In this document: positions 3,518 to 62,423 of the stretch, piece after piece | How the letters are laid out: each line of letters opens with the position of its first letter | Numbering within the stretch: the first letter of the stretch is position 1 | The notes under the pieces: generated by a model | What the model saw: only the letters and a program-made list of their open reading frames with translations | Databases searched by the model: none | Told to the model about the DNA's origin: nothing | Origin: Phycisphaerae bacterium | Lineage (GTDB): Bacteria; Planctomycetota; Phycisphaerae; UBA1845 | DNA: 64,000 bases | Assembly: GCA_029260055.1 (NCBI GenBank) | Contig: JAJDDX010000500.1 | Location: forward strand, 119,467-183,466 | Reading direction: 5' to 3' | Translations under genes and position numbers: made by a program

Positions 3518-5017
3518 TCAGAGACCGCCGGTGATGGTCACCCGACCGTACCACTCGTCACGAAGACGCTTGGTCGCGTACCGTGTCCGCATCCCCTTGC
3601 GGTAGGTCTGGTCGTCCGGGTCCAGGAACGTGGGGGTCATCTGGAGCGGCACGTAGGGCGCGAAGACGAACCCGGCGTCCAGGTAGCTCTGCCCGCGAAG
3701 GCCGAGCATGATCTGGTTGAACCGGAAGAAGGGGTCCTGGTAGCCCCACCACTTGTTCGCCAGGGTGCCCATCTTGATGATGCCCTGGTGGGAGCTGATG
3801 GGACCGTAGCTGGGCGGGGTGACGGTGCCGTCGAACGGCCCCTGCGTGGTGCCCGGCGCGCTGACCCAGGCCGCCCGGTAGTCCGAGTGGGTCTGGAGCT
3901 GCACGAGCTTGGCCGAGACCTCGGGGGAGGTGACGAACCAGTTCGCGGGCGAACGGAGGGTCTTCTTGTGGATGAGATACGAGACCGCGCTCATCCGCGT
4001 GAGTACCGAACGGATGTGGCTGACCTCGTCGAGGCCGGCCGGGACCGTGAAGTCGAACGTGCTGGTCGTGGAGACCGACGCCTGGAAGAGCTGGTCCAGG
4101 ATATCTCGGTCCAGTTCGAGGGCGATCTCCTGGCTGATGCCGGCGACCAACTCGGTCTCCGCGTCGATGCCGTGGAAGGCACGGAGGTCATCGGCGGCCT
4201 CGGCGCTCCAGCGAGCCTTCAACTTCCTAGTCGTCGCGCGGATCGTCTCGAAGTTGATGTCGATGAAGACGTCGGGAACCTGCTTGTTGGCTTCCGAGTC
4301 GTAGTAGTAGGTCGCCCGGACCACTCGTCCAGCACCGGCCGCGGGGGCCGCCGTGAACAGGAATCCAGTTACCTGGCCGGTGGCGTAGTTGATGGAGCCC
4401 GCGGCGGTGTCGCCAGTGAAGCCACCTGCGCCGTCATCGGACGCCGTCTGAGCGACGGTACCGTCTGCGTCAACATCCTCCAGGAGCACGCTGATGCTCG
4501 CCGAGGTATCGAGGGGTCGTACAGGAGAAAACTGAAGGATGCGGTTGAGGGCCGCACCACCACCACCCATGTTGGTGCCGTCGGGAACACCGATCTGCTC
4601 GTTCTCGACCTTCTCGCCCGAGTAGTGCATGTCGAAGTTCTGGATCAGGTTCGACCCTGCGGTCGTCTGGCCCTTGCTTCGTCCATGCTTGTACTCGAAG
4701 TAGAAGACCGCTCCGACCGGGGCCGTCATCGGCTGGACCGAGACGATCTCGTTGGCGATCAGGTTCGGGAACACGCGACGCAGAACGGGGAAGATGTACT
4801 TGGTGTACTGTCCCGCGTTGACGCTGAGCGTGTCCTCGTGAAGCTGACGCCTCATGTCGTCGAGCTGGTTCTCGAAGAGCAGCGACATCACACGGCGCGT
4901 GTAGTGGTCACCCACGCCGTCGAGGAACTGCCCCCACTTATCTTCCAGGAGGGCGGAGTAGGACTCGTCCCGCACCGTCCCTTGGTTTGCTGCACCCATC
5001 ATGTTTCGCGCTTCCAT
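3518..5017 (-). CDS. Major capsid protein, T4 gp23-like
   Basis: 499 residues. The stretch RRVFPNLIANEIVSVQPMTA near residues 80-100, then GAVFYFEYKHG, matches the gp23 signature of T4-type phages (RxxxPNLIAxxIxxVQPMxxPxGxVF). The protein forms the hexamers of the head shell. T4 gp23 is cut by the prohead protease after an (L/I)-x-E; here residues 22-27 read ALLEDK, so a cut after L-L-E is plausible. A glycine-rich insert lies near residues 150-230. The ATG is preceded by GAAGGAG. It follows the protease-scaffold gene as in T4 and ends at a strong terminator, consistent with high expression. The 90-base leader shows TTGAAC but no convincing -10. Confidence 0.93.
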   Translation of the reverse strand: MEARNMMGAANQGTVRDESYSALLEDKWGQFLDGVGDHYTRRVMSLLFENQLDDMRRQLHEDTLSVNAGQYTKYIFPVLRRVFPNLIANEIVSVQPMTAPVGAVFYFEYKHGRSKGQTTAGSNLIQNFDMHYSGEKVENEQIGVPDGTNMGGGGAALNRILQFSPVRPLDTSASISVLLEDVDADGTVAQTASDDGAGGFTGDTAAGSINYATGQVTGFLFTAAPAAGAGRVVRATYYYDSEANKQVPDVFIDINFETIRATTRKLKARWSAEAADDLRAFHGIDAETELVAGISQEIALELDRDILDQLFQASVSTTSTFDFTVPAGLDEVSHIRSVLTRMSAVSYLIHKKTLRSPANWFVTSPEVSAKLVQLQTHSDYRAAWVSAPGTTQGPFDGTVTPPSYGPISSHQGIIKMGTLANKWWGYQDPFFRFNQIMLGLRGQSYLDAGFVFAPYVPLQMTPTFLDPDDQTYRKGMRTRYATKRLRDEWYGRVTITGGL

Positions 5018-5107: not shown

Positions 5108-6769
5108 CTATGAAGGCTTTCCGGTGCCTGCCAGCCTCGAATAGTCACTCACACCCATCCCGAACTCTGCCAGGGGGCCGACCCCAGCTTCGTCCGACTT
5201 GGGCTGCGTCCCGGTGCCGCCATGAGTGTCCTCGTGGAGATCCCGTTCCTTTCCACGCCCTACTCGGGCGCGGATACGATCTGCTTCGTCGTCATCCATG
5301 ATGCGACGTGGTTCGACGACCTCGACGAGCGCAAGGCGCTTGTGGTCGGCGATTGCTTTGCGCGTGGCGTCCTCGTCGGTGAGGTCCTCGCACAGACCCT
5401 CGACGGTGGCGATGTCATCATCGTCCATCCCCCGAGTCTCTTCGGCGACGACCCTGGCGACACGCTCACGCTCCGCGATGCGGATGGCCTGCTGGGCCTG
5501 CTGCTCGTGCTCGGCGGCCTGCTGGTGGGCCAAGCGCTCCCGCTCCTCGGACTCCTGAAGACGACGCTCCATGCCGGCGAAGCGTTCCTCCCACTCGGTC
5601 TGGGCCTCCTCGTCGGAGCTGCCACCCAAGCGGTTCAGTTCTTCGCGCACGGTGTCGACCTTGGTGTCGAGGTCGGTACGGGAGTCGTACTCATTGAGGT
5701 CGCCGATCAGGGCCAGGATGGCCGCCTTCGACGGGTCAGCCCCGAGCTTGCGCTCCAGGTGGAGACCGTAGGCCGCCTCCTTCGCCATCTTCGCGGACTC
5801 GGTCGCCTCGCGGGTGACCTTCTGGATCTCCAGCTCGCGGTCGGCCAACTCCGTGCGGAGCCTCTCGATCTCTTCGTCCTTCGCTCCGAGCTGGCCCTTG
5901 GCCTGAGCATCGACACCGAAGGGCATCACCAGGGATGCGATGGCCTCGACGACCTGTTTGGCCCCAGCTATCTCGGGGTCGGTCATGTAGTCCGAACGGA
6001 CCTTGGCCTCGACCTCTTCGCGCATGACCTCCATGGCCCGGCGCATCTCACCGGAGAAGCGGTCCACGAGACGGTCTCGGGTACGCTCCTCGGCCTCGAT
6101 GATGGCTCTGGCAACATCACTGCCAGTAGCACCCTCAGTCAGACCGGCGCCGCCACCGTTGAACTCACGAGCCAGCTCACCCACAAGTCCGGGGTAGTCC
6201 TTTTTCAGGGCTTCGACCGTCAGCTCCATCTCGTCCTCCCAGATCTTGCCTCGCTCTTCCCGGAACACGGCCGGGTAGGCGGTCTTGGTGGCGGGGTCCG
6301 CCACGAAGTCGAACGTGTCGAGCCGAAAGTCCTCCTGGACCTCCATGACTCCGTCGCTGAGGGTCTTCACGGACCCAAAGCCACGCGAACTAATGCCGAC
6401 CTCGCCGCTCGCCTCCGCGATGGCCTTCATGATGCGGCCGTTGGGCGTGTCGATGACCTCGGCCTCGCCGTAGACCTCGTTCCCGCGGACCTCCAGCTTG
6501 GTGATGATGTGGCTCACCCTCTGGAGCCGCGTGCGACCGTCCTGGGGGTGGTCCAGCTCGCCGTAGACACGACGACGCTTGATGCCCTCGGAGAGGCGAC
6601 CAAACTCGCGCTTCCACAGGTGCTCCCTGTAGAGACGCTTGTTCTCCGTCGCCTTGTCGGATCGCGCGAACTGCCCCTTGATGATGATCTTGTTGGGGGA
6701 GCCAGACTCCTTCGCTTCGGTGAGCGAGAACCTGAGGGTCGAGTGATGATCTATGAGCAGCTCTGCCAT
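5108..6769 (-). CDS. Prohead protease fused to scaffold (gp21-gp22 type)
   Basis: 553 residues. Residues 25-170 match the T4 gp21 serine protease (family S80): GELDHPQ with the likely catalytic His74, RVSHIITKLEVRGNEVYGEA, and GISSRGFGS with the likely catalytic Ser127/128. The remainder (about 200-520) is highly charged, helical and coiled-coil-like, as expected for a gp22 scaffold core. In T4 these are separate genes; here one frame encodes both with no internal stop. The gene lies between the portal side and the capsid gene as in T4. FSLTE at residues 14-18 fits an L-x-E self-cleavage site. This protease is the obvious candidate to trim the capsid-targeting-like proteins at 39.6-43.5 and 56.5-60.3 kb. 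Confidence 0.85.
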   Translation of the reverse strand: MAELLIDHHSTLRFSLTEAKESGSPNKIIIKGQFARSDKATENKRLYREHLWKREFGRLSEGIKRRRVYGELDHPQDGRTRLQRVSHIITKLEVRGNEVYGEAEVIDTPNGRIMKAIAEASGEVGISSRGFGSVKTLSDGVMEVQEDFRLDTFDFVADPATKTAYPAVFREERGKIWEDEMELTVEALKKDYPGLVGELAREFNGGGAGLTEGATGSDVARAIIEAEERTRDRLVDRFSGEMRRAMEVMREEVEAKVRSDYMTDPEIAGAKQVVEAIASLVMPFGVDAQAKGQLGAKDEEIERLRTELADRELEIQKVTREATESAKMAKEAAYGLHLERKLGADPSKAAILALIGDLNEYDSRTDLDTKVDTVREELNRLGGSSDEEAQTEWEERFAGMERRLQESEERERLAHQQAAEHEQQAQQAIRIAERERVARVVAEETRGMDDDDIATVEGLCEDLTDEDATRKAIADHKRLALVEVVEPRRIMDDDEADRIRARVGRGKERDLHEDTHGGTGTQPKSDEAGVGPLAEFGMGVSDYSRLAGTGKPS

Positions 6770-8037: not shown

Positions 8038-8050
8038 CTCAGGTCTCCTC

Positions 8051-8986: not shown

Positions 8987-9034
8987 TGTTGGACCTACAC
9001 AGAGCCGGAGCTTTGCCCCGGCGAGTTGCTGTGA

Positions 9035-9064
9035 ACGCTATTGCTGGTGCCCAAGGGCTGTCAA
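9035..9064 (-). promoter_or_regulatory. Sigma70-like promoter after the portal gene
   Basis: TTGACA at 9059-9064, 18-base spacer, TAGCGT at 9035-9040 (minus strand). It would drive the gene starting at 8986 and possibly the protease-scaffold genes. Confidence 0.45.
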
Positions 9065-9095
9065 GTATCGCCACCCACGGCAGGGCCACGTATCG

Positions 9096-11801
9096 TCAGG
9101 CTGCCTTGGTAAGGTGACCCTTGATCTCACTGAGCAGACCTCCCAGCTCCCTCATACGCCTCACGGTGGTGGCATCGTTGGCGAGTAGCCGTTGAAGTTT
9201 ACTGTCTACCTTCCTGACATCATTCATCTTTCGGTCGAACGAACGCTCCCAGTCCCGGTGGTGAGAGCTGAGCATCTTGGCGAACTGACGCTCGACCAGC
9301 GGGTCACCGCGATGTCGGCGGCGCTCGGCCTCCGGGGCAGCCTTCTCCTGGGGCGGCGCGCCGTCCTCTGGCTCCTGCTGCTGCGTGGGAGGTGCTTCCT
9401 CTTCGCCGCCGCCGAGCTTGGCCACGCGGTTCTCCATCCGGGCCGCCTGGAGCTGCTCTTCCTCTCGCTCCTTCATCAGTGAGTGAGCCTCTTCGTCCGT
9501 AAACTTGAACAATGACGTGAGGATCCAGCGCGTCGAAACGCTCTCCTTCATGCGCTCGGCGAGGTCGGCCGTGGCGCTCATGACCTCTAGCTTCGCCAGC
9601 TCCATGATGGCGCTCGGGACGCTCATCCGGACCTCGTAATCGTGGGCATCGGGATTCTCAGCACCCCTGGCCACAAGGTGGATACGGCACGCCTTGCGGT
9701 AACCCATCTGCATCTCAGACTGGATGCGCATGACGGTCCGCGCGAAACGGATGTCTTCGCTGGACAGCGAGCCACGGGTCGCCTCTCCGCCATAGCCCAT
9801 GTAGGGCTTCGGAACCTTCAGGGCCGCGACCAGCTTGTCCCGGTGGTACTCCAGCGAGTCCGTCTCCGCGTAGTCCGGCCCCTGGAGGACCTCGATGCGG
9901 GTGCTGTCCTTGCCGCCGCGGGACGGGACGAAGAAGTCCTCGTCGTGCGCGAGCGGGTTGTAGCGCATGTCGAGCTTGCCCGTGGAGGGGTTCACGAACT
10001 TCTTCTTCACGAACTGATTCTTGACCCGGTTCACGTAGGCAAGGCCCCGCTCACCATCGAGTTCGCCGATGTCGACATAGAAGGCGTATCGCGAAGGAGC
10101 CCGGCTCAGCTTGTAGATGAGGAGCGCATCCTCCAGAAGAGCGAGCCTTTTCCAGATCCAGCGGGCCGGGTCGATGACCCCGTGGCCGTAGACCGACCTG
10201 AGGTGCTTGCCGCGGAGCCGCCAGTGAATCAGCTCCCAGTCTTCGAAGACCGTCAGCTCCCCCTGGCCCCTCGTGCGCTCGGAGTTCGTGCCGCGCTGCT
10301 TCGCGAGCTTGTAGAAGTCCTCCAGCGAGAGGTTGAACTCGCCGCGGGTGTCCTGGATGAATCCGAGGAGCTGGCCCTTGGGACCCTCAACCCGTCGACA
10401 GGTTGGCGGTGGGAGGAAGCTGATGCCCACGAGCCCCTGCTCGGAGACGAGGGCCTCGCCGTACCCGTTGCCGTACTTGCCCAGGGTCCGAGCCAGACCC
10501 CAGTTGTCGCTCTCGACCAAGAGCTGTTTGTGCAGCATGTGGTTCAGCTCTTTGGACGTGGAGTTGTCCGAGCTGGTCACCCAGACCGACTGGTTCCGCT
10601 CCATGTCGGGGATGGTTGCGTCGTCTGCATAAAGATCCAGGGCGGTGTTGTGAACCACCACCCCATGGCACACGAAGTTGTGGAACCCCGGCACATGCAG
10701 ATCGTACACCGCAGGACTCTCGTCGAGATGCTCGACACGAAGCACCCTGTGGTTGCCGCCGTCGCTGACCAGGTCGAACGCGACGGCCCTCCTCTTCGCC
10801 ATTGACCACGAAATCCCGAGGATCTCAGCCGCACCTGCAACCGTACCTCCCTCCGACAGGGCCGACTCCATCTTGGCTCGTGAAATGTCGATTCGGTTCG
10901 GCTGCGTATTGCCGCGCATCTTCTCGGCCTGCTGAAGGCGTCGTTCACCTGTCCATTCCGGAAAAAAACGGCTGTTGTCGATGTCCGCGATGTGGTGACC
11001 AGCATGTGTGGACCTGGTCTCGATCGACAGGTTCGACGGGTCGTTGTTGAGCTGGTCATGGTTCTCGTGATGAACCACCTGGTACTCGCCTCGTTCCACC
11101 GAGAGCATCTCCTCGGCCACCAGGTGATGGAGCCAGACCCATCGCTTTCCGTCGCTCGAACAGATCTCAGAATCCGCATGGGGCTGATGGATCTGCCAGT
11201 AGGGCGATGCCGAGGAGTCGTTCAACGACCTGAGCCTGAGGTTCCCTGGCATGAGCCGCTGACCCACCACGAGGTCTCCGGCCTCGATCCACTGCTCGTC
11301 CTTGGCCAGGAAGGGGTGGTCGGCTGTGCAGACAATCTGCTCCCCATTGTCGAGGGTGACCCGCACCATCGGCTTGTGGTGACCCTCAGGGGCCGACAAA
11401 AGGGCCGTGCCCTCGGCGGGCACCAGGGACCGCCGTTCCTTGTCGTAGGCGATGACGTGGAAGTTCTGGCCCACCATGTCACGGATCTGAACCCACCCAC
11501 GTTCCAGTGTGAAGACCGGCGAATCCCCGTGTAGACACGAAATCTCCGGGTATTCGTCCATCTCCTCGTAGTCCGAGAAACGGGCCTGGAGGTCCTGGTC
11601 AACGCGAAGGTGTTGGGCGAGGGAGTCGTACCCGAACTGAGAGGCGAGGTTGTAGGGGAGCCCGGCCCGCTCGGAGCTGGGCATCCCTCCTCTGCGGAGC
11701 TGCGCGGCTTGGACCTCGGGCGCGCGAGCGAAGAACGACCTGATGGCCGTGCCCATGCCCTGCGAGAACCCTTCCCAAAGACTCTTGTTCGTCGTTGCCA
11801 C
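9096..11801 (-). CDS. Portal protein, T4 gp20-like, interrupted by an intein
   Basis: The frame encodes 901 residues, about 604 after removal of a 297-residue intein (residues 89-385). The exteins join as EYPEIS-TALDLYADDAT, which matches T4-type portals (EIxxALDIYADE). The rest shows the gp20 pattern: FEDWELIHWRLRGK, VYGHGVIDPARWIWKRLALL, SRAPSRYAFYVDIGEL, LSSEDIRFARTVMRIQSEM. The portal is the dodecameric ring through which DNA is packaged and leaves the head. The stop lies 4 bases after the start region of nothing else; the terminase gene lies directly upstream with a 4-base gap, as a packaging operon. Splicing is needed for function. Confidence 0.92.
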   Translation of the reverse strand: MATTNKSLWEGFSQGMGTAIRSFFARAPEVQAAQLRRGGMPSSERAGLPYNLASQFGYDSLAQHLRVDQDLQARFSDYEEMDEYPEISCLHGDSPVFTLERGWVQIRDMVGQNFHVIAYDKERRSLVPAEGTALLSAPEGHHKPMVRVTLDNGEQIVCTADHPFLAKDEQWIEAGDLVVGQRLMPGNLRLRSLNDSSASPYWQIHQPHADSEICSSDGKRWVWLHHLVAEEMLSVERGEYQVVHHENHDQLNNDPSNLSIETRSTHAGHHIADIDNSRFFPEWTGERRLQQAEKMRGNTQPNRIDISRAKMESALSEGGTVAGAAEILGISWSMAKRRAVAFDLVSDGGNHRVLRVEHLDESPAVYDLHVPGFHNFVCHGVVVHNTALDLYADDATIPDMERNQSVWVTSSDNSTSKELNHMLHKQLLVESDNWGLARTLGKYGNGYGEALVSEQGLVGISFLPPPTCRRVEGPKGQLLGFIQDTRGEFNLSLEDFYKLAKQRGTNSERTRGQGELTVFEDWELIHWRLRGKHLRSVYGHGVIDPARWIWKRLALLEDALLIYKLSRAPSRYAFYVDIGELDGERGLAYVNRVKNQFVKKKFVNPSTGKLDMRYNPLAHDEDFFVPSRGGKDSTRIEVLQGPDYAETDSLEYHRDKLVAALKVPKPYMGYGGEATRGSLSSEDIRFARTVMRIQSEMQMGYRKACRIHLVARGAENPDAHDYEVRMSVPSAIMELAKLEVMSATADLAERMKESVSTRWILTSLFKFTDEEAHSLMKEREEEQLQAARMENRVAKLGGGEEEAPPTQQQEPEDGAPPQEKAAPEAERRRHRGDPLVERQFAKMLSSHHRDWERSFDRKMNDVRKVDSKLQRLLANDATTVRRMRELGGLLSEIKGHLTKAA
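10647..11537 (-). other. Intein in portal, with HNH-type endonuclease
   Basis: 297 residues from Cys (block A: CLHGDSPVFTLERGWVQIRD) to His-Asn (VCHGVVVHN) followed by Thr as +1 residue. Block B is VCTADHPF. The core holds an HNH-like homing endonuclease, YQVVHHENHDQLNNDPSNL, then HAGHH, and a helix-turn-helix-like segment (AGAAEILGISWSMAKRRAV) that could bind DNA. Both splice ends look intact. Confidence 0.9.
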
Positions 11802-22415: not shown

Positions 22416-22444
22416 ATTATGGTGGTATGGTTTGCGATTGTCAA
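22416..22444 (-). promoter_or_regulatory. Near-consensus sigma70 promoter
   Basis: TTGACA (22439-22444), 17-base spacer, CATAAT (22416-22421) on the minus strand. The -35 overlaps the stop codon of the UvsW-like gene. The start point would leave about 13 bases before the regulator's ATG. Confidence 0.82.
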
Positions 22445-39576: not shown

Positions 39577-42500
39577 TCAGCTCCAGACCGAGTGCTGGTA
39601 CTCGTAGCCGATCTTCTTCTTCTTCAGCCACTCGGTGAACTTGTCGAAGGAGATGCCTTTGAGGATCGACTCGTTGGCTTTGAGCATCTTGAAGAGCTTA
39701 CGCGCCGCACCGGGGCTCTTCGAGACGAGCTTGGTGTAGCTGGGATCGTGGCCGCCCCGCATGTCAGAACCAGGCGAATAGGCGCTGAACTTCGTCCACT
39801 CGGCGTGGACGACGAAGTCCTTGGCGTCGATGTCGAGCGGGTCAACATCCTCGGGCTCGACCTGGAGGTAAAAGACCATCTCCTCACGAGGATGGAACCA
39901 GGTCTTCTTGTCGAGGCCGGCCTCCTTCACGGCGGCCTCCATGGCGCTCGAGAGTTTGCTCTTCACCTTGTCGTAGACATCGCCACCCGCGATCTTTGCG
40001 ACCCGGAGAATGTTCTGGGCGATGAACGCTGCGTGGCGGTTGCTGAAGCCCGGATTCTGGAGGGTCAGCTTCCTGAGCTTCTTCTTGCCCTTCACGGGCA
40101 GCTCTTCGAGCACGAAGTGGTAGCCCGACCACTGGAGGCGGTACGCCTTGCCGACGATCTTGCCGTCCCAGCGCGGACCCTCTTCAAGAGGCTCCGGTCC
40201 CTGCGTCCTCCGGTGGGCATCGTCGCGGGAGCGCTCCATGACCGTCTTGGCCAGGTGCATGGACCCGCCGACCATCTCCATGAGGGCGTCCTTGGACGGC
40301 ACGTCGCGCTCCTCAGGTCGCTGGCGACTGCTCTCGATGACGAGCTGGTTGAGGTTGGTCGGGCCAACGCTCTCAACCAGGAGACCGACGCGGCCGAAGG
40401 CGGATGCCTCGACGCTACTGGAGCCGGCGCTCTTGAGGCGCTTGGCGAGCATGAGGGCGCGGAGCATCCCCGTCTCATCCTTCGAGCGGCCCGTGCGGCC
40501 CTTCATCTCGCGGATGGTCGCGTCGATGCGATCGACCGGGATGTCATCACCGTTGTTGACGCCGAGGAAGCGACTGACCCGGTTGGGGTCCTTGACCGCA
40601 TCGGCGATCGACCTCTTCTCGCTCAGCGACAGACGGTCGAGGTCCTCGAAGCTCTCGGTCTTGGCGCCACGGGAGAGGTGCTTGACCACCCGGTCGAGCA
40701 TCATCTTGCACAGCGCGTCGAGCCCAGTCTTCGAGCCCACCGACACGATCTGTCCGCCCCAATCCCGCGGAAGGTTGACCGTCCCCTGGAAGTAGTTGTC
40801 GTCTGGCTGCCGGATGACGAACTGGGCCTGTAGCTTCTCGTTCTTGGCAGTCACGATACCGATCGTGGCCGACATGCCCCACTGGGAACGCTTGCTCGGC
40901 CCGAACTTGTCCGTGTCGAGGATCCGGAGCTTCGCCTTCGGCGTGATCGCGCCGAGACCCTTCATGAGCTTCTTGCCGACCGCCGGTGGCGTCGGGTTCC
41001 CGCCAGCCTCCTCGAAGAAAGGGTCCGTGGACTGATCCACATCCTCGGAGAACTTCGCGAGCGTCGCGAGATCATGTTTCTCGATGGCCTTCGCGGCGGC
41101 CACAGGGGTCTTGAAGGTGCCAGAGAGGCCCTGGAGCTTGCCGTTGCCAACCACCCAACCCTGCTTCTCGTAGCCAGCGGGCAGGTTCCCCGCGACGCGC
41201 TTGGCCGCCGGGTTGATGCCGTAGCTGCCGTAGCGGTAGCTCATCGAGCCACCTCTCATCTTTCCGTCGAGCGACGACTTGTACTTCCTACCAACACCAC
41301 CGCCCGAGACCGCGTACCCCGAGTAGCTCTCGGCCTCGCCCAGATCCGAGCCCTCAGACTCCGCGTACTTGGCCCGCTTCGCACGAGGGTCGTCCGAGTC
41401 GGTCTCGAAGTACCGCTTGAAAATCTGGAGCGCCATCATCTCACCGCTCACGCGGGTCACGAAGATGAGATAGAGGAGCCCGGCGTTGCTCGGGACCTTA
41501 CGCACGTACTTCGCGAGCTTCGGTGAGACCTTCTGGAGGTTCTGCATCCACTTGTTGAAGGCCGGCCGCGGCTTGCCCGCGATGAAGTCCTGGGTGTCGT
41601 TGAGATGCGGGTCGTCCTTGACCCCCCACGCCAGGCCCAACTTGTCCCTGGGGATGGCGGTGATGGCCGCTCGGACCTTCGGGAAGAGCATCTCCTCGGG
41701 ACCCTTGCCCGCCTCGTCCTTCCACATCTTCAGGACCTTGGAGGAGACCTTGAAGCCGCCGGGTTTGGTGGGCTTGTCCTCACCGCCGAACGCAAGGCCA
41801 GGGGCACCGCGCTGAGCTTCGTCGAGACGGCCAGCAGCGAGGAAGTCTGAGAGGTTCGAGTGTTCCATATATCCCCGTTGTGACGCCTTCCAGGCGGCTG
41901 ACTTTTGACGCTTGATCCGAGCGCTTGCGGGCTCGGGAGAGGCGTTGGGTTGTCTCAACGCCGGCCGGTCGCCGTGCGACTTTTTGAGGGTCTTCGCGAT
42001 GTCGCTCTCGAACTTGTTCTGGATGCTCATGTACTCCAGGTACGGGAGCGACCAGGCGCCGTTGTTGAAGCGGAAGCCGACTCGTTTGAGCAGCTCCTTG
42101 ATCGGGTAGGTGTTGCCCTCGAAGACGATGTCCGCGTCGTGGATGGTGCGGTTGCCCTTCCACAGGATGCGCACCTTCACGTCGTAACGGTCGAGGCGTG
42201 CCTTGCGCCGGATGCCGCTCTCGACCTCCTTGATCTTCTTCTTCGTCGTGGAAGGGAGCGGGGTCTTCATCTCGTCGCTCGGGTAGCCGACGGTCGCGAA
42301 GTGGTCCTGGTTCTTGCGTAGGATCCCGTCGTTGTGCCGCTGCACCAGGTCGTTGACCTTCTCGATGGTCGCGCGGACCTTGGCCTCGGGCACATTGCCG
42401 CGGTGGCTCCGGTGGTCATCCCGGATGTGAATCATGGACCAGCCCTTGTTCCGCTGGTCGAACTTGAGCCCGAGCTTCTTCAGCTCGTCCTTGATGGGGA

Positions 42501-43491
42501 AGGACCCGCCGGAGACGTGAACCCCATACTCACCAGGCAGGGGGTATCCACCGCTCGAACCACCACGGAAATCCCCGAAGGCCGTGTTCGAAACCCTGAC
42601 CTGGACGCGCTGCTCCAGCCGCTCAGCGAGGTAGCGCTCCTTCTCGTCGGGAGTCTTCCCCCAGCTCGCGAGAGCGTGGGTTGCCTCCTCGAAGAGGGTG
42701 TCCGTGGGCGGCTCCACGCCCTCGTGCGCGCGACGCGCTGACGCCTTCACGATGAAGTCGCCGATGGCCTTGCCGAGCTTCTTTGGGTCGGACGAGGTGA
42801 TGGTCCTGGAGACCTTCCGGTTCTTCGAGGAGACCTGCGCAGCGAGCTTGTCGCCGCCGCTGAGGACGTTGCTGATGTCGATCTCGAAGCGGTTCCAACC
42901 GGTCCGCTCCTGCCCCACGTGAACCGAGAGGATGTGCCGCTGCGGGGTCGTGATGTCGGCCTTCGAGCCCCCCGCCTCGATCGCACGAGCGACCTCGCGC
43001 GAGAACGGGCTAGCGACCTTCAGTTCCTCGGCGGACCAGTTCATGGCCTCGCCCAGCTCGACCGACTCGTGCTTGAGACCCCCTTCGACGCGGTCCACGA
43101 TGGCCCTACCGATCTTCTGGTTGCCGCCAGCCTTCTTCCCCAGCTCGACGAGCGTGCCGAGATCGGTGAACCTACTGTCCTTGCTGCCCTGAACCTTCAT
43201 GGCGGCCTCGTAGCCACTCCTGGACCTGAAGATCTGGATGGTCGCGCTTTGGTCGCCAACTTTGAAGGTGACCTGGACCTTGCTCGCGCCCACCCCAAAG
43301 GCAGTCCCAGATGTCCTGCCATCCTTCTTGATCTGGACCGCGACCGTGTTCCCAACCTTCTCCAGGTCGGCGTCGTTGCCTTCGTTCACCAGCTCGAAGT
43401 ACGCGGCCCATTCGGCACCAAACGTAAGGTCGGAAGCCCCACGGTGAGCTTCGTCAACGCGGCTCTCACTCAAAAACGATCGGATGTCCAT
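39577..43491 (-). CDS. Giant 1,304-residue protein with two capsid-targeting-like signals
   Basis: It starts MDIRSFLSESRVDEAHRGAS, after GGAG. A second signal, MEHSNLSDFLAAGRLDEAQR GA, lies in frame at residue 542 (ATG 41868), so it looks like two cargo proteins fused. Both signals end in an L-x-E or V-D-E then (S/A)xR. The first module carries two repeats of the form FPIKDELKKLGLKF and YPIKELLKRVGFRF followed by a Trp, resembling DUF5710-type short domains. The second module is globular and unrecognised. It may be an internal head protein, cut by the gp21-like protease and injected with DNA. The upstream gene's stop is 2 bases before its ATG. Confidence 0.7.
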   Translation of the reverse strand: MDIRSFLSESRVDEAHRGASDLTFGAEWAAYFELVNEGNDADLEKVGNTVAVQIKKDGRTSGTAFGVGASKVQVTFKVGDQSATIQIFRSRSGYEAAMKVQGSKDSRFTDLGTLVELGKKAGGNQKIGRAIVDRVEGGLKHESVELGEAMNWSAEELKVASPFSREVARAIEAGGSKADITTPQRHILSVHVGQERTGWNRFEIDISNVLSGGDKLAAQVSSKNRKVSRTITSSDPKKLGKAIGDFIVKASARRAHEGVEPPTDTLFEEATHALASWGKTPDEKERYLAERLEQRVQVRVSNTAFGDFRGGSSGGYPLPGEYGVHVSGGSFPIKDELKKLGLKFDQRNKGWSMIHIRDDHRSHRGNVPEAKVRATIEKVNDLVQRHNDGILRKNQDHFATVGYPSDEMKTPLPSTTKKKIKEVESGIRRKARLDRYDVKVRILWKGNRTIHDADIVFEGNTYPIKELLKRVGFRFNNGAWSLPYLEYMSIQNKFESDIAKTLKKSHGDRPALRQPNASPEPASARIKRQKSAAWKASQRGYMEHSNLSDFLAAGRLDEAQRGAPGLAFGGEDKPTKPGGFKVSSKVLKMWKDEAGKGPEEMLFPKVRAAITAIPRDKLGLAWGVKDDPHLNDTQDFIAGKPRPAFNKWMQNLQKVSPKLAKYVRKVPSNAGLLYLIFVTRVSGEMMALQIFKRYFETDSDDPRAKRAKYAESEGSDLGEAESYSGYAVSGGGVGRKYKSSLDGKMRGGSMSYRYGSYGINPAAKRVAGNLPAGYEKQGWVVGNGKLQGLSGTFKTPVAAAKAIEKHDLATLAKFSEDVDQSTDPFFEEAGGNPTPPAVGKKLMKGLGAITPKAKLRILDTDKFGPSKRSQWGMSATIGIVTAKNEKLQAQFVIRQPDDNYFQGTVNLPRDWGGQIVSVGSKTGLDALCKMMLDRVVKHLSRGAKTESFEDLDRLSLSEKRSIADAVKDPNRVSRFLGVNNGDDIPVDRIDATIREMKGRTGRSKDETGMLRALMLAKRLKSAGSSSVEASAFGRVGLLVESVGPTNLNQLVIESSRQRPEERDVPSKDALMEMVGGSMHLAKTVMERSRDDAHRRTQGPEPLEEGPRWDGKIVGKAYRLQWSGYHFVLEELPVKGKKKLRKLTLQNPGFSNRHAAFIAQNILRVAKIAGGDVYDKVKSKLSSAMEAAVKEAGLDKKTWFHPREEMVFYLQVEPEDVDPLDIDAKDFVVHAEWTKFSAYSPGSDMRGGHDPSYTKLVSKSPGAARKLFKMLKANESILKGISFDKFTEWLKKKKIGYEYQHSVWS

Positions 43492-45121: not shown

Positions 45122-45149
45122 TTCTTATGGGGTAACAATCAAGAGTCAA
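45122..45149 (-). promoter_or_regulatory. Sigma70-like promoter of ParB-like gene
   Basis: TTGACT (45144-45149), 16-base spacer, TAAGAA (45122-45127), overlapping the stop of the SNF2 gene (45139). The leader of about 30 bases includes AAGGAG. Confidence 0.62.
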
Positions 45150-56495: not shown

Positions 56496-56990
56496 CTAGA
56501 TACCCTTCCAGCCTCGCCCACTAAGGTACGCACGTATCTCGTCAGGCTTCATATTGGTGTCCCTAGACATCCGGTCGATGGAATTGGTGACCACTCGCGA
56601 TCGGTCAGGCCCCTTCGAGCCGGCTGCGATCTTGAGCTGCTTGTAGAAGCGGCTGCCCGTGATCCTCTTGAGGGTCTTCATATCCGACGCCTTCGCGTGA
56701 TCCCGCTGAGCCTCCTGAGCCTTCTTCCACATGAACGCCTGCGACTTGCTCGACTCTCCGCGTCCCTTGAGGATCGCCGCGCACCTTGTGCCGACGTAGA
56801 TCTCACCGCTCTCGTCGGCGTGATCTCGACTCTGCATGACCACGCACTTCTTGAGGTTGCTCTTCCCGCACCTCTCGCACTGGTCGTGGTCACCGGACGT
56901 CCCGATGATGTCCCAGGCCCCAGCCATCCCGCCCTTGGCCCGCGCCTCGGTCAGTCCGCGGCTCTCGGCCAAGTATTCTTGAAGGTCCAT
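56496..56990 (-). CDS. Zinc protein with capsid-targeting-like N terminus
   Basis: 164 residues. It starts MDLQEYLAESRGLTEARAKG, nearly the T4 internal-protein signal MKTYQEFIAEA, with cleavage expected after L-A-E (residue 9). The rest has a zinc cluster CERCGKSNLKKCVV with a later Cys (GTRCAAIL) and a basic helical C-terminal half (RDHAKASDMKTLKRITGSRF). In the T4 head, proteins with this signal are packaged and trimmed by the prohead protease. The neighbours at 57.0 and 59.0 kb carry the same signal. Function after entry unknown. Confidence 0.65.
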   Translation of the reverse strand: MDLQEYLAESRGLTEARAKGGMAGAWDIIGTSGDHDQCERCGKSNLKKCVVMQSRDHADESGEIYVGTRCAAILKGRGESSKSQAFMWKKAQEAQRDHAKASDMKTLKRITGSRFYKQLKIAAGSKGPDRSRVVTNSIDRMSRDTNMKPDEIRAYLSGRGWKGI

Positions 56991-56992
56991 GG

Positions 56993-57550
56993 CTACAGTC
57001 TTGCCCCTTTCCGGAACGCACCACCCACACCGGTCTTCATAGCAGATTTGAGGTCCCTGACCGTGATGCCCTGGTCCTTGAAGAGCCGCTGGTAGAGCGC
57101 GGTGGCGATTCCCGTGCGCCTGAACTCTGGCTCCACCTCCACGAACAGGATGTCGTACTCCTTCTGCCACTGGCGCCACGAAAGCACCCCCACGCGCTCG
57201 CCTGACGGGAGGTAGGCGTGAATCCACCCCTCCCACTGATCCCCCATCGAGTCCCCACCGGTCTTGATCTTGAGCCCACGGATCTCCACCGTGCCCTGGG
57301 GAGTGCTTTTGGTGAGCCGCCGCATGATCTGGCCCTGAAACCGTGTGCCTCCGTCGCCGGTCCAGAAGACCGTTCGCCCACGCCACACAGCGAGCTGTTG
57401 CCCACCCATACCGCTCTGGTGGAGCTTCTTCCCGTCGGTGCTCAGGATGCCACCGGAGTCATCGAGAGGCAGTTGGTCCGCAAAGGCGTCGACGACCTGG
57501 AGGGTGCTCTTACGCAACCTTGATTCGGCCAGGTATTCGCGGAGATCCAT
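56993..57550 (-). CDS. GNAT acetyltransferase with capsid-targeting-like N terminus
   Basis: 185 residues from MDLREYLAESRLRKSTLQVV (an ATG 3 codons upstream is also open). The signal is cut after L-A-E by analogy with T4. Then LFVEVEPEFRRTGIATALYQ RLF is the acetyl-CoA binding motif A of GNAT N-acetyltransferases (R/Q-x-x-G-x-G/A). A host-directed protein modifier delivered with the DNA, as T4 delivers Alt, is the natural inference. Target unknown. Confidence 0.7.
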   Translation of the reverse strand: MDLREYLAESRLRKSTLQVVDAFADQLPLDDSGGILSTDGKKLHQSGMGGQQLAVWRGRTVFWTGDGGTRFQGQIMRRLTKSTPQGTVEIRGLKIKTGGDSMGDQWEGWIHAYLPSGERVGVLSWRQWQKEYDILFVEVEPEFRRTGIATALYQRLFKDQGITVRDLKSAMKTGVGGAFRKGARL

Positions 57551-57560
57551 GGTGGGCATT

Positions 57561-58877
57561 CTACCCGTCAGGTGGCCGTTCCTTCCAGTTGCCAGTCACG
57601 AGGGCCGGGATCCCGAGCGTGTGGCAGTCGAAGACGTACTCTTCGGCGCGTGTGACCTTCGAGCCCCACTCGCCCACGACACCGCACCCTCCGCACGCCA
57701 CATCCGAGTCGTCGACGTCCTCGTGCGGCTTCTTCCCGTCCTCGTCGAGCTTCAGGCCCCGGAGGGCGCCCATCTTCTGGGTCAGCTGCGTGCGGTAGGT
57801 CGCCACCTCCCACCGGGCCACCAGCTCGGGATCCGTAGTCCTCACGAAGCACTGGTTCGACAGGTACTCCTCATCGGAGTTGCCGCCCCCGTGACAGACG
57901 CCCTTGGATATGTACTTGGCGGCCCTCTCCAGGCCCTCACGGCTTCCCCGCGGGTCGGTGGCATGGTTGCGGCGTCCCTTGCCTGCCGGGGCGTAGGCGA
58001 CGTCCTGAACGTGAATCGAGCCGATACGGTCCAGGTCCTCGTGTGCAGACGTCTGCATGACCGACTCCAGCACGTAGGAGTTCGTCGGCGGGCCGAAGTA
58101 GAGGAGGTTCGCGTGAACGTGACCGCGGACAGAGACCTCGATCGTCCGGTAGCAGCCGGCCTTCGGAACCTTCAGCTCGTGCTGCCACAGGTACTTCACC
58201 GACCGCGCCGCAAGCTGGACGCGAGACCGCAGACCCTCGACGCTGAGATCCTCGGGATCATCCGGGTCGTAGGGGAACGTCATCACGACCATGTGCCAGC
58301 GGTGCCCCCGGTGGTCGAGCTTGTCGAACGCCTTCCCCATCCATTCGCTCACGCGCTTCGCGCGGACCCAGGCGCACGTCGGGCATCCCCTGGTCTTGCA
58401 CGTGTGCGTCCCCTCGTAGGTACCCGTTCCCCCACGTACCGATCCGCAGGCTCCGCACGAACGAACCATCACATGAGACCCACAACGCATGAACGACTCC
58501 AGCCTCTTCTGGAGCTTCAACCTCACCCCGACTGGCTCAGCCGCAATAGCCTCATCCCATTCGTCCCGTACAGCTCGCTTGAACGTGTTCCGGTTGTGAC
58601 CCCATCTGGAGAAACCTGAATCGTCCCAATGGGTTGAAGAGTTCTTTCCCTTTTGATCAAGAGAGCGACGGCGGCGGCGCTTCTTCGGGCGGCGCACCTT
58701 CCGATCCGAGCAAGGGTCCGGCGGCGTGTGGCGGCCCGACCGCGAGGCATGGTGTGGCGCTACGTTGCCTGACACCACTGGTTGTTGTAGATCTGGTCCT
58801 ACCACGCTCAATCCCCTGGCTTCGTGTGGTTTCCAGTCGGGCCAACGCGCGCAAGCGCGACCAAAGCCCAACCACAT
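57561..58877 (-). CDS. HUH rolling-circle Rep-like protein
   Basis: About 438 residues from ATG 58877 (GGAGGGG 11 bases before; the start is uncertain and the first 100 residues are basic and low-complexity, RKVRRPKKRRRRRSL). Then CGACGSVRGG, CKTRGCPTCAWVRAKRVSEW (zinc), HRWHMVVMTFPYDPDD (motif 1), EVSVRGHVHANLLYFGP (HUH motif His-Val-His), and EGLERAAKYISKG (Tyr-x2-Lys motif 3). This is the order of Rep/relaxase HUH nucleases. Such a gene is unexpected in a T4-like phage and may come from a plasmid or transposon. It may nick an origin. Confidence 0.65.
   Translation of the reverse strand: MWLGFGRACARWPDWKPHEARGLSVVGPDLQQPVVSGNVAPHHASRSGRHTPPDPCSDRKVRRPKKRRRRRSLDQKGKNSSTHWDDSGFSRWGHNRNTFKRAVRDEWDEAIAAEPVGVRLKLQKRLESFMRCGSHVMVRSCGACGSVRGGTGTYEGTHTCKTRGCPTCAWVRAKRVSEWMGKAFDKLDHRGHRWHMVVMTFPYDPDDPEDLSVEGLRSRVQLAARSVKYLWQHELKVPKAGCYRTIEVSVRGHVHANLLYFGPPTNSYVLESVMQTSAHEDLDRIGSIHVQDVAYAPAGKGRRNHATDPRGSREGLERAAKYISKGVCHGGGNSDEEYLSNQCFVRTTDPELVARWEVATYRTQLTQKMGALRGLKLDEDGKKPHEDVDDSDVACGGCGVVGEWGSKVTRAEEYVFDCHTLGIPALVTGNWKERPPDG
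58044..58057. repeat. Palindrome copy 6 (inside the Rep-like gene)
   Basis: TGCAGACGTCTGCA, perfect, coding for VMQTSA in the Rep-like protein. It is the only copy fully inside a gene. Confidence 0.6.
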
Positions 58878-58971
58878 CGAGAGGAATTCCCCTCCGCTCG
58901 ATGTGGGGCTGGTGTATCCAGCTCCCGGTGAAGGAGGGGACGGTACCTGTGAGGGACCGGGCCGGCAAGCG

Positions 58972-59001
58972 GCTAACACCTGCCGCCTGGCAGTTGTTAG
59001 C
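58972..59001. repeat. 13-base-pair hairpin upstream of Rep-like and protease genes
   Basis: GCTAACACCTGCC and GGCAGTTGTTAGC with 4-base loop GCCT, 12 of 13 bases paired. It lies between the divergent Rep-like and metalloprotease genes. No T-run follows, so it is not a classic terminator. Possible nick site for the Rep-like protein or an operator. Confidence 0.5.
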
Positions 59002-59041: not shown

Positions 59042-60301
59042 ATGGATCTACAGCACTTCCTCGCCGAGCAACGGCTGACCGAGGGAAGCTCGTTCGACGA
59101 GGCGTGGGTCAAGGGCATCCGGAAGTGGTGGAAGACCTGGTCGTCCCGAGGGAAGAGGTTCGAGGGCCGCTACACGACCGTGGGCGGCCTGGGACACAGG
59201 TCCGGGCTCGAACACCTGGACGCCGCCGGGGCCGCGGCCAAGGCGTACCTGACCGAGGGGCACGAGATGGTCGAGCGCCTGAAGACCGACCTCCTGGTCA
59301 ACAAGGGCTTCTGGCACGTGCCGGACAAGAAGGCCGACAAGGGGATGCTCGCCCGCGAGTGGAAGACGAAGACCGTCCAGGAGATCGACGAGGCGAGAAA
59401 ACTCCTCGTCGCCGGGGTACGCGCCGTCGAGTTCTGGTCCGCGGGTGGCTATGACGCCGGCCCTCACATGTCCCGAGAACAGACCGAACTGAAGCTCCGT
59501 GACATCGAGAAGGTCAACAGGATGATCTCGACGATCAACGCGGCCGTCGACGAGGTTGTCGAGCGCGTCGACAAGATCATCTCGGGTCGTCTCCTCCGAC
59601 ACCTGACGAAGCTGGCCAAGATGGGCGGGTGGCAGGACAACAAAGTCGACCTTGGGGGGCACGAGCCCGAGGCGGTGACCCTGGGGAAGGCCCAGCTCAT
59701 CTTCATGGGCACCCCGAAGGGAAAGGCGACGGCGAGCGCCCGTCACCCGCGAATGAGGAAGCGGTACATCGCGTTCGCGCAGGACGTTCGGAATACCCTC
59801 CGGAAGCACAACCTCGGCTACCTCTGGTATGGGAAGTTTTTCACGAAGGCGAAGGGGGACGCGCCCGAGAACCACCTGGGGGTCCACTTCGGGGTCGGGG
59901 CCACCTACTCCCGCAAGGGCGACTACATCACCGTCTACGCGGACCCGAAAAGGAGCATGGCGTTCATGCTCATCCACGAGCTGGGGCACCGCTACTACTA
60001 CAAGTTCATGAACGCCACGGACCGGCACAACTTCGACCGCTGGTTCGGGAAGACGAAGCCCACGAGCAACTACGGTGCAACGATCTCCTCGGAGGACTTC
60101 GCCGAGGTCTTCGCTAGCTACGTGACCGGCAGAAACATCTCGCGCGACCAGGCCGCGCGACTCAAGGAGTTCTTCGGTCGCACCAAGCGCCTGGAGAGCC
60201 TCTCCGTGCCTGATAGGATAGCGACCATGGAACTCCAGTGTTTCCTCACCGAGAGCCGCCGGCGGCGTGGTAGAACCCTCGTCCGCTCATACCCAACCTG
60301 A
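59042..60301 (+). CDS. Zinc metalloprotease with capsid-targeting-like N terminus
   Basis: 419 residues from MDLQHFLAEQRLTEGSSFDE (AAGGTG before). The signal would be cut after L-A-E. Near residues 310-330 FMLIHELGHRYYYKF is a zincin HEXXH motif (HELGH), with a downstream SSEDFAEVFASYV that could give the third ligand Glu. The rest is helical. The last 25 residues restart a signal-like MELQCFLTESRRRRGRTLVR (ATG 60227), in frame. Inference: a protease packaged in the head and injected. Alternatives are a structural or host-lysis role. Confidence 0.72.
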   Translation: MDLQHFLAEQRLTEGSSFDEAWVKGIRKWWKTWSSRGKRFEGRYTTVGGLGHRSGLEHLDAAGAAAKAYLTEGHEMVERLKTDLLVNKGFWHVPDKKADKGMLAREWKTKTVQEIDEARKLLVAGVRAVEFWSAGGYDAGPHMSREQTELKLRDIEKVNRMISTINAAVDEVVERVDKIISGRLLRHLTKLAKMGGWQDNKVDLGGHEPEAVTLGKAQLIFMGTPKGKATASARHPRMRKRYIAFAQDVRNTLRKHNLGYLWYGKFFTKAKGDAPENHLGVHFGVGATYSRKGDYITVYADPKRSMAFMLIHELGHRYYYKFMNATDRHNFDRWFGKTKPTSNYGATISSEDFAEVFASYVTGRNISRDQAARLKEFFGRTKRLESLSVPDRIATMELQCFLTESRRRRGRTLVRSYPT

Positions 60302-60316: not shown

Positions 60317-60673
60317 ATGCTCAATCCCCTCGGTGACCGAGTCATCATCCGCCGCGACGAAGAAGAGGAGAAGACCGAAGGTGGTCTCTTCATCCCGGAC
60401 ACCGCCAAGCAGCCGCCCATCGAGGCGACCGTCATTGCCATCGGACCTGGGTTCCGCTGCCCCGACAACGGCATCTTCATCGAGACGACCCTCAAACCCG
60501 GCCAACGGGTCATGGCTGGCCCCCACGCCGGCATCGAGGTGTCCATCGACGTCGAGGACGGCAACGGGAAGATGAAGCACATCCTTCTCCGCGAGGGAGA
60601 GATCCTCGGGACGCTCGACGGCAACAGCGAGGAAAAGAAGGCTGAAGCCCGGAAGACGCACGAGACGAGCTAG
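60317..60673 (+). CDS. GroES (Cpn10) cochaperonin
   Basis: 118 residues with GAAGGAGAAG ribosome site. NPLGDRVIIRRDEEEEKTEG GLFIPDTAKQPPIEATVIAIGPG contains the conserved GroES pattern: PLGDRVIIRR, mobile loop TEGGLFIPD, VIAIGPG, and later KPGQRVMAGPHAG. It should cap a GroEL-type ring, in phages for folding the capsid protein as T4 gp31. It ends by sharing CTAG with the stop of the minus-strand gene. Confidence 0.92.
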   Translation: MLNPLGDRVIIRRDEEEEKTEGGLFIPDTAKQPPIEATVIAIGPGFRCPDNGIFIETTLKPGQRVMAGPHAGIEVSIDVEDGNGKMKHILLREGEILGTLDGNSEEKKAEARKTHETS

Positions 60674-60889: not shown

Positions 60890-61981
60890 TCAAGCGGCAG
60901 CCGCATGGTTGGCCCGGTTTACGGCGAGGGTCTGGTGTCTCCCCGGTCCGAGTGAGTCTGTCCATCCGACAGTACCGTTGCTCCGGTGACGCACCGAGTA
61001 CGCCTGGGGGAGCAGGAGGTCCATGAGGGGCGCGAGGACGGCGCTCTTACTGTTCTCGACGTGGTACGTGTACGTCGTCAGCTCCAGTTTCCCGTCGGGG
61101 CCGACCAGCTCGCGCATCTTCATGGCAAGGTACTCGGCGGCCTCCTTCATCGTGCGGAAGCCCTGGAGGAACCCCTTCTTCCAGTTGCCCTCGGTGTCGA
61201 CCTCCAGCGTCGTCGACTGAATGAGCGGGAGGATCCACGCGAGGTCCTTGCACATCGTGTCGATCATCGTCTTCGAGGGGCGCGGCCAGCACGTGGCGAT
61301 GCACTCGATGCCGCGCGAGTGGAAGAGGGTCGAGACCTTCTCCAGCTCCTCACGGTCCCAACGGAGTGCCCACGGCACCTGGCTCGCGAGCGTGTTCGAC
61401 TTGTTGATCATGAGCGCGGCGATCCTGATCTGCATCTGCTTGAGGTGGTCGGCGAACTCGGGCTTCCACACGTCGTGGATCGGGTCGTCGATCCACGCGC
61501 CGACGATGACGTCGTCGGGGATGGTTTTTCGCTCCAGCCACGCGCCGGAGTAGTCGTTTCCCTTGTTGCCGCCGTGGGAGAGCTGCTCTGGGATGAGCCA
61601 CTCGCTCGACCAGTAGCGGATCTCCTTGCACCCCTCGGAGACCGCGGTGTCGAAGTCCTTGTCCATCGCCTCCTCGGGCGAGTGGCCGGGGAAGGTGTTG
61701 TCGTAGGCCGCTAGGCCACACCCGATCTGGACGACCTTGGGCGAGTAGGCAGGGACCAACTCCCACGAGTCCTTGATGGCTGCGTAGGTGGTCGACCCTA
61801 CCTTGCCGTCTGCGGCCAGCCCGTTGGCGGCCTGCCAGTCGGCGACCTTCCTCACGGTGTCCGGCCCCCAGACACCATCCTCGACGGCTCCCACGGTCTT
61901 CTGGGTGAGCTTGATCTCCCCGTCGCAGTAGCCCTGCTTCTTGTTGTACTCGACCGCCGCGCTCGCTTCGCTGTTCGTCAT
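60890..61981 (-). CDS. Peptidoglycan-binding endolysin-like protein
   Basis: 363 residues from MTNSEASAAVEYNKKQGYCD (GAGGGAGAG before). Residues 25-70 are a PG_binding_1 domain (VEDGVWGPDTVRKVADWQAA, NGLAADGKVGSTTYAAI). Residues 80-363 look like a TIM-barrel hydrolase (PKVVQIGCGLAAYDNTFPGH, EIRYWSSEWLIPE, IVGAWIDDPIHDVWKPE), of the general type used by phage wall enzymes such as DUF1906/GH25-like folds. Probable lysis enzyme; no signal peptide seen, so it would need a holin. Confidence 0.65.
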   Translation of the reverse strand: MTNSEASAAVEYNKKQGYCDGEIKLTQKTVGAVEDGVWGPDTVRKVADWQAANGLAADGKVGSTTYAAIKDSWELVPAYSPKVVQIGCGLAAYDNTFPGHSPEEAMDKDFDTAVSEGCKEIRYWSSEWLIPEQLSHGGNKGNDYSGAWLERKTIPDDVIVGAWIDDPIHDVWKPEFADHLKQMQIRIAALMINKSNTLASQVPWALRWDREELEKVSTLFHSRGIECIATCWPRPSKTMIDTMCKDLAWILPLIQSTTLEVDTEGNWKKGFLQGFRTMKEAAEYLAMKMRELVGPDGKLELTTYTYHVENSKSAVLAPLMDLLLPQAYSVRHRSNGTVGWTDSLGPGRHQTLAVNRANHAAAA

Positions 61982-61991
61982 CTGCTCTCCC

Positions 61992-62423
61992 TCAGTGGCC
62001 GGAGAGCAGGTCCTCCATCCTGTGTTTGGCATGGGTGTCCACCCGGTTCATGCCCCACTCGGGACACTCGTGTGGACAACAGCCCTCGCACTTCGAGAGG
62101 CAGTCTCCGAGATCTTCAACATTGAGAGCATTGCAGTGTGGGAGGTGCCCTGTCGAGCCGCAGTCCTCGCACACGTAATCGCCGTCGACGACGAACTCAG
62201 CGAAGACCTCGCCCTCGGGGAACATGCCGCGCTTCAAATCGTGCTGCGCCTCCTGGAAAAAGCTCGACTCCATGTCGTGCGCGTCGGAGGCCGCGTCCCC
62301 ACTCGGCTGAGGGCCTAGGATGTAGAACAGGACCAGCTCGCAGCACTTCCTGCGCGCGAGGACCAACCGCTCCTTCCGGGACTTGGAAGTGCGGTTGGCC
62401 TCTATAACGTCGAAGAGACTCAT
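61992..62423 (-). CDS. Cysteine-rich protein, unknown
   Basis: 143 residues. CEDCGSTGHLPHCNALNV, then CLSKCEGCCPHECPEWG packs 9 Cys in about 40 residues, probably two zinc sites. N-terminal helix is basic. Function unknown. Confidence 0.55.
   Translation of the reverse strand: MSLFDVIEANRTSKSRKERLVLARRKCCELVLFYILGPQPSGDAASDAHDMESSFFQEAQHDLKRGMFPEGEVFAEFVVDGDYVCEDCGSTGHLPHCNALNVEDLGDCLSKCEGCCPHECPEWGMNRVDTHAKHRMEDLLSGH

What the first reader, a model, noticed from the sequence alone, without database searches (positions are those of the whole stretch)
59042..60301. Candidate injected zinc metalloprotease
The HELGH zincin motif sits in a protein with the capsid-targeting-like tag. A phage-delivered host-directed protease acting at the start of infection would be unusual.
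Basis: partly seen in the sequence, partly recalled or inferred. Interest (0 to 1): 0.75.

Follow-up and report, generated by a model that had tools for sequence, protein, structure and literature searches.

The report
Capsid-tagged phage zinc protease, likely injected
A T4-type bacterial virus appears to pack into its head, and probably inject with its DNA, an intact zinc protease distantly related to anthrax lethal factor and Pro-Pro endopeptidases; it carries the same short packaging tag as several other proteins of that virus, which suggests a ready-made set of early-acting effectors.

Summary
The gene at 59042-60301 (+, 419 aa) encodes HELGH at residues 312-316. Across ten diverse phage relatives H312, E313, H316, Y344 and E351 are invariant. 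Purifying selection on the zincin domain is strong in one close pair (dN/dS about 0.07).

The tag is also real. MDLxx[FY]L[AS]E begins four otherwise unrelated proteins of this phage and none in three related phages. Those phages have their own tags, which their zincins carry clearly (two cases) or weakly (G002). All encode a T4 gp21-type prohead protease, and the tags contain a hydrophobic-x-Glu site of the kind it cleaves. Another phage's tagged set includes HicA-toxin and alarmone-synthetase domains.

Best reading: a capsid-targeted, internal-head, M34-like protease delivered to the host. Packaging is well supported by inference; host targeting is likely but untested; no virion data exist. 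Injected zincins are known from polyvalent proteins and N4 vRNAP, so this is a new variant of a known kind, less unusual than claimed.

The parts
59042..60301 (+). Tagged zincin gene, 419 aa (P0001)
59042..59083 (+). N-terminal tag MDLQHFLAEQRLTE; candidate prohead-protease cleavage sites after L-A-E (residue 9) and L-T-E (residue 14)
   Evidence: cleavage itself not tested
59093..59620 (+). Conserved N-terminal helical region (residues 18-193, DxxWVKGIRxW ... SGRLLRHLTK), function unknown
59654..60199 (+). Zincin catalytic domain (residues 205-386), M34/PPEP-like fold
   Evidence: AF2 pTM 0.82, pLDDT 82; Foldseek to lethal factor and PPEP-1
59975..59989 (+). HELGH: zinc ligands H312 and H316, general base E313
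   Evidence: invariant in 10 relatives
60071..60073 (+). Y344, predicted oxyanion tyrosine (equivalent of PPEP-1 Tyr178)
60086..60112 (+). SSEDFAEVF; E351 predicted third zinc ligand (equivalent of PPEP-1 Glu185)
60227..60301 (+). In-frame second tag MELQCFLTESRRRRGRTLVRSYPT at the C-terminus; probably the remnant of a neighbouring tagged gene
   Evidence: low-confidence region of the model
56993..57550 (-). Tagged protein MDLREYLAESR..., GNAT acetyltransferase domain, 185 aa
56496..56990 (-). Tagged protein MDLQEYLAESRGLTE..., 164 aa, Cys-containing, no family
39577..43491 (-). Tagged protein MDIRSFLSESR..., 1304 aa, no known domain
5108..6769 (-). T4 gp21-type prohead protease, the expected tag-removing enzyme
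   Evidence: phrog_207 E=1e-43
3518..5017 (-). T4 gp23-type major capsid protein
   Evidence: phrog_138 E=3.7e-63
9096..11801 (-). T4-type portal protein (with intein)
   Evidence: Portal_T4 E=2.3e-53, Intein_splicing E=1.9e-18

Best explanation
The gene encodes a stand-alone, catalytically intact, M34/PPEP-like zinc endopeptidase that behaves as a T4-type internal head protein. Steps, marked as shown or inferred: (1) it has an intact zincin active site, H312/H316/E351 with E313 and Y344 (shown by conservation and predicted fold); (2) its short N-terminal tag targets it to the prohead core (inferred from the tag being shared within this phage and swapped between phages, and from T4 precedent); (3) the gp21-type prohead protease removes the tag after a hydrophobic-x-Glu site (inferred from the motif and the presence of the protease gene); (4) the mature enzyme leaves the head with the DNA (inferred from T4 IP and Alt precedent); (5) in the new cell it cleaves one or a few specific host proteins, most likely defence or regulatory, before phage genes are expressed (inferred, untested). 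It belongs to a set of co-tagged candidate effectors (GNAT and others here; HicA-type toxin and alarmone-synthetase domains in a relative).
For: Active site invariant in 10 relatives. Catalytic-domain model pTM 0.82; Foldseek top hits are lethal factor (E 5.2e-4) and PPEP-1, TM 0.34-0.52. Profile alignment to PPEP-1/Zmp1 puts Y344 and E351 on Tyr178 and Glu185, with the same 7-residue spacing. dN/dS is 0.07 over the zincin domain of one close pair. Tag: within-phage regex hits 4/0/0/0 for the C445 tag and 9/0/0/0 for the G002 tag; the FTEA tag gives 5 in G001 plus 1 in its close relative G003 and none elsewhere. The zincins of C445, G001, G003 and, less clearly, G010 carry their own phage's tag. 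All of these phages have the gp21-type protease; C445, G001, G002 and G003 also have a gp23-type capsid protein. Tag codons differ between copies while residues are kept. Co-tagged proteins include GNAT, HicA (E 4e-13) and RelA/SpoT (E 2e-9) domains. T4 precedent: CTS-bearing internal proteins are packaged, trimmed by gp21 and injected.
Against: There are no virion proteomics, no cleavage data and no known substrate. Only T4 precedent links the tag to packaging here. The G002 zincin (MSLALLIERE) matches its phage's tag only weakly. In many huge-phage relatives no gp21-type protease was found and the N-termini are of another type. Zincins in polyvalent proteins have been proposed to process their own polypeptides rather than host proteins.
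Confidence: 0.55

Rival explanations
1. It is a packaged or prohead-resident maturation protease: it enters the head by the tag but cleaves phage proteins (co-packaged tagged proteins, itself, or scaffold remains) during assembly or on ejection.
For: Iyer et al. favour self-processing for many phage zincins (P1 DdrB precedent; PMC5512222). A zincin of jumbo phages has been proposed to act in virion maturation (PMC7824862). In the 485-kb phage the zincin is fused to a GNAT domain that it could release.
Against: The phage already has a gp21-type protease. The window protein is a single catalytic domain, not a multidomain polypeptide. Relatives sit among accessory effector-like genes such as HicA in G002.
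Confidence: 0.22
2. It acts at the envelope during DNA entry, cleaving a periplasmic or membrane protein or helping the ejection conduit, rather than a cytoplasmic host target.
For: The long N-terminal helical region (residues 20-193) could serve in translocation. The nearest solved relatives, PPEPs, are secreted enzymes (PMC12828418).
Against: No peptidoglycan-binding or membrane domain was found in the family scans. One relative is fused to, and the window gene lies near, a GNAT domain, which needs acetyl-CoA and so suggests the cytoplasm.
Confidence: 0.12
3. The tag is not a capsid-targeting sequence but some other shared signal (for example partner binding), and the protease is made late and acts inside the producing cell.
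For: Packaging has not been shown. Three tagged genes are on the minus strand and the zincin on the plus strand, so they are not one operon.
Against: Tag residues are kept while codons diverge, so the signal is in the protein. The tag has the length (about 10 aa, N-terminal) and Glu-ending motif of T4 CTS sequences, and gp21-type protease genes occur in all the phages with such tags.
Confidence: 0.1

Closest known systems
T4 internal head proteins (IPI, IPII, IPIII) and Alt, with their capsid-targeting sequence
   Same: Short N-terminal tag of about 10 residues shared by otherwise unrelated accessory proteins, a Glu-ending cleavage motif, and a gp21-type protease with T4-type capsid and portal proteins in the same genome.
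   Different: The tag sequence differs from phage to phage and was not compared letter by letter with T4's. No T4 internal protein is known to be a protease (own knowledge). Packaging is not shown here.
Polyvalent-protein zincin metallopeptidases (Iyer et al. 2017), including N4 virion RNA polymerase
   Same: Zincin with HExxH and a Glu on the next helix; phage-encoded; predicted to be delivered; lethal-factor-like by profile comparison in that paper.
   Different: The window protein is a stand-alone zincin with its own tag, not part of a multidomain polypeptide. The relative in the 485-kb phage (zincin plus GNAT in one chain) is closer to a polyvalent protein.
M34-type gluzincins: anthrax lethal factor catalytic domain and clostridial Pro-Pro endopeptidases (PPEP-1/Zmp1)
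   Same: Catalytic fold, HExxH plus Glu third ligand, and a catalytic Tyr seven residues before that Glu.
   Different: 14-19% identity in structural alignments, Pfam ATLF score below the curated cut-off, no receptor-binding domain found, unrelated helical N-terminal region. No evidence of any action on animals or people.
Phage proteins annotated as peptidase, M34 or lethal factor (Pseudomonas phage PaBG S5WBB3, Erwinia phage pEa_SNUABM_5, Siphoviridae ctrCN24)
   Same: Weak overall fold similarity (Foldseek E 4e-3 to 0.6, probability 0.97-1.00).
   Different: TM-scores only 0.20-0.31 (query-normalised); none shown to bear a capsid tag in the data seen here.

Membership tests
M34/PPEP-like gluzincins (Pfam ATLF) | HExxH on the active-site helix | tested here: met
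   H312-H316, helix 306-322, invariant in 10 relatives
M34/PPEP-like gluzincins (Pfam ATLF) | Third ligand Glu on the following helix, with the oxyanion Tyr 7 residues before it | tested here: met
   Y344 and E351 align with PPEP-1 Tyr178 and Glu185
M34/PPEP-like gluzincins (Pfam ATLF) | Overall catalytic-domain fold | tested here: met
   Foldseek top 44 PDB hits are all lethal factor or PPEP-1/Zmp1, best E 5.2e-4, TM 0.34-0.52; moderate, not close
M34/PPEP-like gluzincins (Pfam ATLF) | Passes the curated Pfam gathering score | tested here: not met
   PF07737 13.7 bits against cut-off 27.4; PF15887 14.8 against 27. Hence 'M34-like', not filed as a member
T4-type CTS-bearing internal head proteins | Short N-terminal tag shared with unrelated proteins of the same phage | tested here: met
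T4-type CTS-bearing internal head proteins | Genome encodes gp21-type prohead protease and T4-type head | tested here: met
   also in relatives
T4-type CTS-bearing internal head proteins | Tag removed by the prohead protease after Glu | not testable with these tools
   Motif present (LAE, LTE); no N-terminal sequencing or mass spectrometry data
T4-type CTS-bearing internal head proteins | Protein is in the virion and injected | not testable with these tools
   Needs virion proteomics
Polyvalent proteins | Two or more effector domains in one polypeptide | tested here: not met
   Window protein: helical region plus one zincin, no second known domain. Met only in the relative P0007 (zincin plus GNAT)
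Polyvalent proteins | Falls in one of the 12 published MPTase clades | not tested
   The published alignment was not available here

The most novel reading that the evidence does not exclude
T4-type phages carry exchangeable sets of stand-alone host-directed enzymes (protease, acetyltransferase, HicA-type RNase, alarmone synthetase) made injectable by a short phage-specific capsid tag; the zincin is a recurrent member that is re-tagged as it moves between phages, and it cleaves a specific host defence or regulatory protein within minutes of infection.
Probability: 0.4. Interest if true: 0.8.

Novelty: new variant of a known kind. Interest (0 to 1): 0.57.

Why it matters
If right, the phage-specific tag gives a simple way to list a phage's injected proteins from sequence alone. 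The recurring protease would be an injected host-directed protease of a T4-type phage whose substrate could be found by N-terminal proteomics. It also supplies a testable link between packaged proteins and early counter-defence, since for T4 internal proteins other than IPI the target was still unknown in PMC9391042.

Tried and rejected
Single-sequence PDB search: no hit. Single-sequence viral scan: none; alignment-based scans were needed. Bacterial and archaeal genome scans found no relative, twice, so there is no sign of a cellular or prophage copy at that sensitivity. The full-length model was dominated by the helical bundle in Foldseek against the PDB; only the catalytic domain alone was informative there. 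I considered that the G002 C-terminus also holds a second tag and rejected it: the same segment ends the G010 protein (RLESLSDQLIGALREA), so it is the normal C-terminus of the family. Weak hits to UPF0184 and a type I specificity subunit fall in the helical region and look like coiled-coil noise. An ADP-ribosyltransferase reading of G001 71138-71737 had no family support and is left as an impression.

Full report
What is there. The window is the last 64 kb of a 183,466-base contig, C445. The contig begins and ends with the same 141 bases (from the match positions) and carries T4-type capsid, prohead protease and portal genes, so I read it as an essentially complete myovirus genome binned with a 7.6-Mb bacterial assembly, not as an integrated prophage. 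Its host is not known. The gene in question is 59042-60301 on the plus strand, 419 residues, between a rolling-circle-Rep-like gene and a GroES gene.

The protease. A single-sequence Pfam scan gives only sub-threshold hits to two metallopeptidase families. Alignment-based scans of viral contigs found eleven loci, then a wider set of 33 loci, many from huge phages; two scans of bacterial and archaeal genomes found none. In an alignment of ten sequences, the others 18-38% identical to the window protein, the invariant residues include H312, E313, G315, H316, R317, Y344 and E351-F357. The catalytic domain alone models well (pLDDT 82, pTM 0.82): strands, then a helix with HELGH, then a helix at EDFAE, as described for zincins. 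Foldseek's first 44 PDB hits are all lethal factor or PPEP-1/Zmp1, with moderate TM-scores. An HMM alignment to PPEP-1 puts Y344 and E351 on Tyr178 and Glu185, and in PPEP-3 the equivalents are the oxyanion Tyr190 and zinc ligand Glu197, the same spacing of seven (PMC12828418). In a close pair of relatives dN/dS is 0.07 across the zincin domain against about 0.3 in the helical region, so the active site is being kept.

The tag. Four C445 proteins begin with the pattern M-[DE]-[LIM]-x-x-[FY]-L-[AST]-E: the zincin, a GNAT protein (56993-57550), a 164-residue protein (56496-56990) and a 1304-residue protein (39577-43491). The pattern matches none of 113-275 proteins in each of three related phages (proteome sizes). 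Those phages have other tags, each shared by unrelated proteins: M..[LIV]FTEA in G001 (five proteins, including its zincin) and M.L[SA]..L.EA in G002 (nine proteins). The zincin of G003 carries the G001-type tag. In G010 the zincin shares an N-terminal segment with two neighbours. The G002 zincin starts MSLALLIERE, which resembles but does not match its phage's tag, so that case is weak. The conserved core starts after the tag in each case. Codons of the C445 tags differ (16-25 of 36 bases identical) while residues are kept, which argues for selection on the peptide.

Why capsid targeting. In T4, short N-terminal sequences of 10-20 residues direct internal proteins into the prohead core; gp21 trims them, always after a Glu, and the proteins are injected with the DNA (PMC5694885; PMC9958956; PMC9391042). 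C445, G001, G002, G003 and G010 all have a gp21-type protease gene. The tags here have the right length, position and Glu-ending motif. This is inference by analogy; I had no mass spectrometry for this phage.

Why host-directed. The zincin's neighbours and co-tagged proteins look like effectors rather than structure: GNAT here, and in G002 a HicA toxin domain starting after the tag (residues 23-78) and a RelA/SpoT synthetase domain. In the 485-kb phage the zincin and a GNAT domain are one chain. Against this, zincins in polyvalent proteins have been proposed to process their own polypeptides, with host cleavage as a further option (PMC5512222). I put packaging at about 0.85, an active protease at about 0.9, and the full chain including a host substrate at 0.55.

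The second tag. The last 24 residues, MELQCFLTESRRRRGRTLVRSYPT, repeat the tag in frame. The G010 protein ends at RLESLSDQLIGALREA, which corresponds to RLESLSVPDRIA here, so the repeat lies beyond the normal C-terminus. The simplest reading is a leftover start of a neighbouring tagged gene, consistent with gain and loss in a cluster of tagged genes.

Known or new. Injected zincins are known (polyvalent proteins; N4 vRNAP, PMC12633501), and some phage peptidases are already annotated M34 or lethal factor. What is new, as far as the searches here show, is a stand-alone, capsid-tagged zincin recurring in T4-type phages together with other co-tagged candidate effectors. The literature search covered open-access papers only. 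I rate it a new variant of a known kind.

Noticed in passing
window 9096-11801, 11806-15168, 29202-31793 (-): Inteins interrupt the portal (HNH), terminase (LAGLIDADG) and DnaB-like helicase (LAGLIDADG) genes; LAGLIDADG domains also sit in two more helicase genes at 22441-25575 and 45139-48207. An intein-rich phage.
   Followed up: partly
window 57561-58979 (-): Protein with a Rep_1 rolling-circle replication initiator match (E 6.6e-8, just under cut-off) and an IS91-type zinc domain, between the tagged GNAT and the zincin.
   Followed up: no
window 60317-60673 (+): Phage GroES directly downstream of the zincin. In relative L022 an ORF that reads like GroEL (7545-9194) lies just upstream of the zincin, by eye only.
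   Followed up: no
window 60890-62032 (-): Likely endolysin: peptidoglycan-binding domain and endolysin PHROG matches.
   Followed up: no
G000 contig C445, both ends: Exact direct repeat of about 141 bases at the two contig ends, suggesting a complete, circularly assembled phage genome binned with a bacterial assembly.
   Followed up: yes
L043:2977-3576 and L040:4884-5885 (phage G002): Tagged proteins with a HicA toxin domain and a RelA/SpoT-type alarmone synthetase domain, the latter also matching PADLOC PDC-S33; candidate injected effectors.
   Followed up: partly
L028:11138-11737 (phage G001): Tagged 199-aa protein that by eye resembles an ADP-ribosyltransferase; no family scan supports it.
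   Followed up: partly
L063, L065, L066, L067, L068, L071, L080, L082: Huge-phage zincins start with a different motif (RVAxRFL-like); 15 of 460 proteins in the fetched loci have it in the first 28 residues against 1 of 460 further in, including a few neighbours of zincins. Possibly another packaging tag.
   Followed up: partly
L017, L080, L082 (485-kb phage); L067, L077 (512-kb phage): Several zincin copies of this wider family in one phage genome.
   Followed up: no
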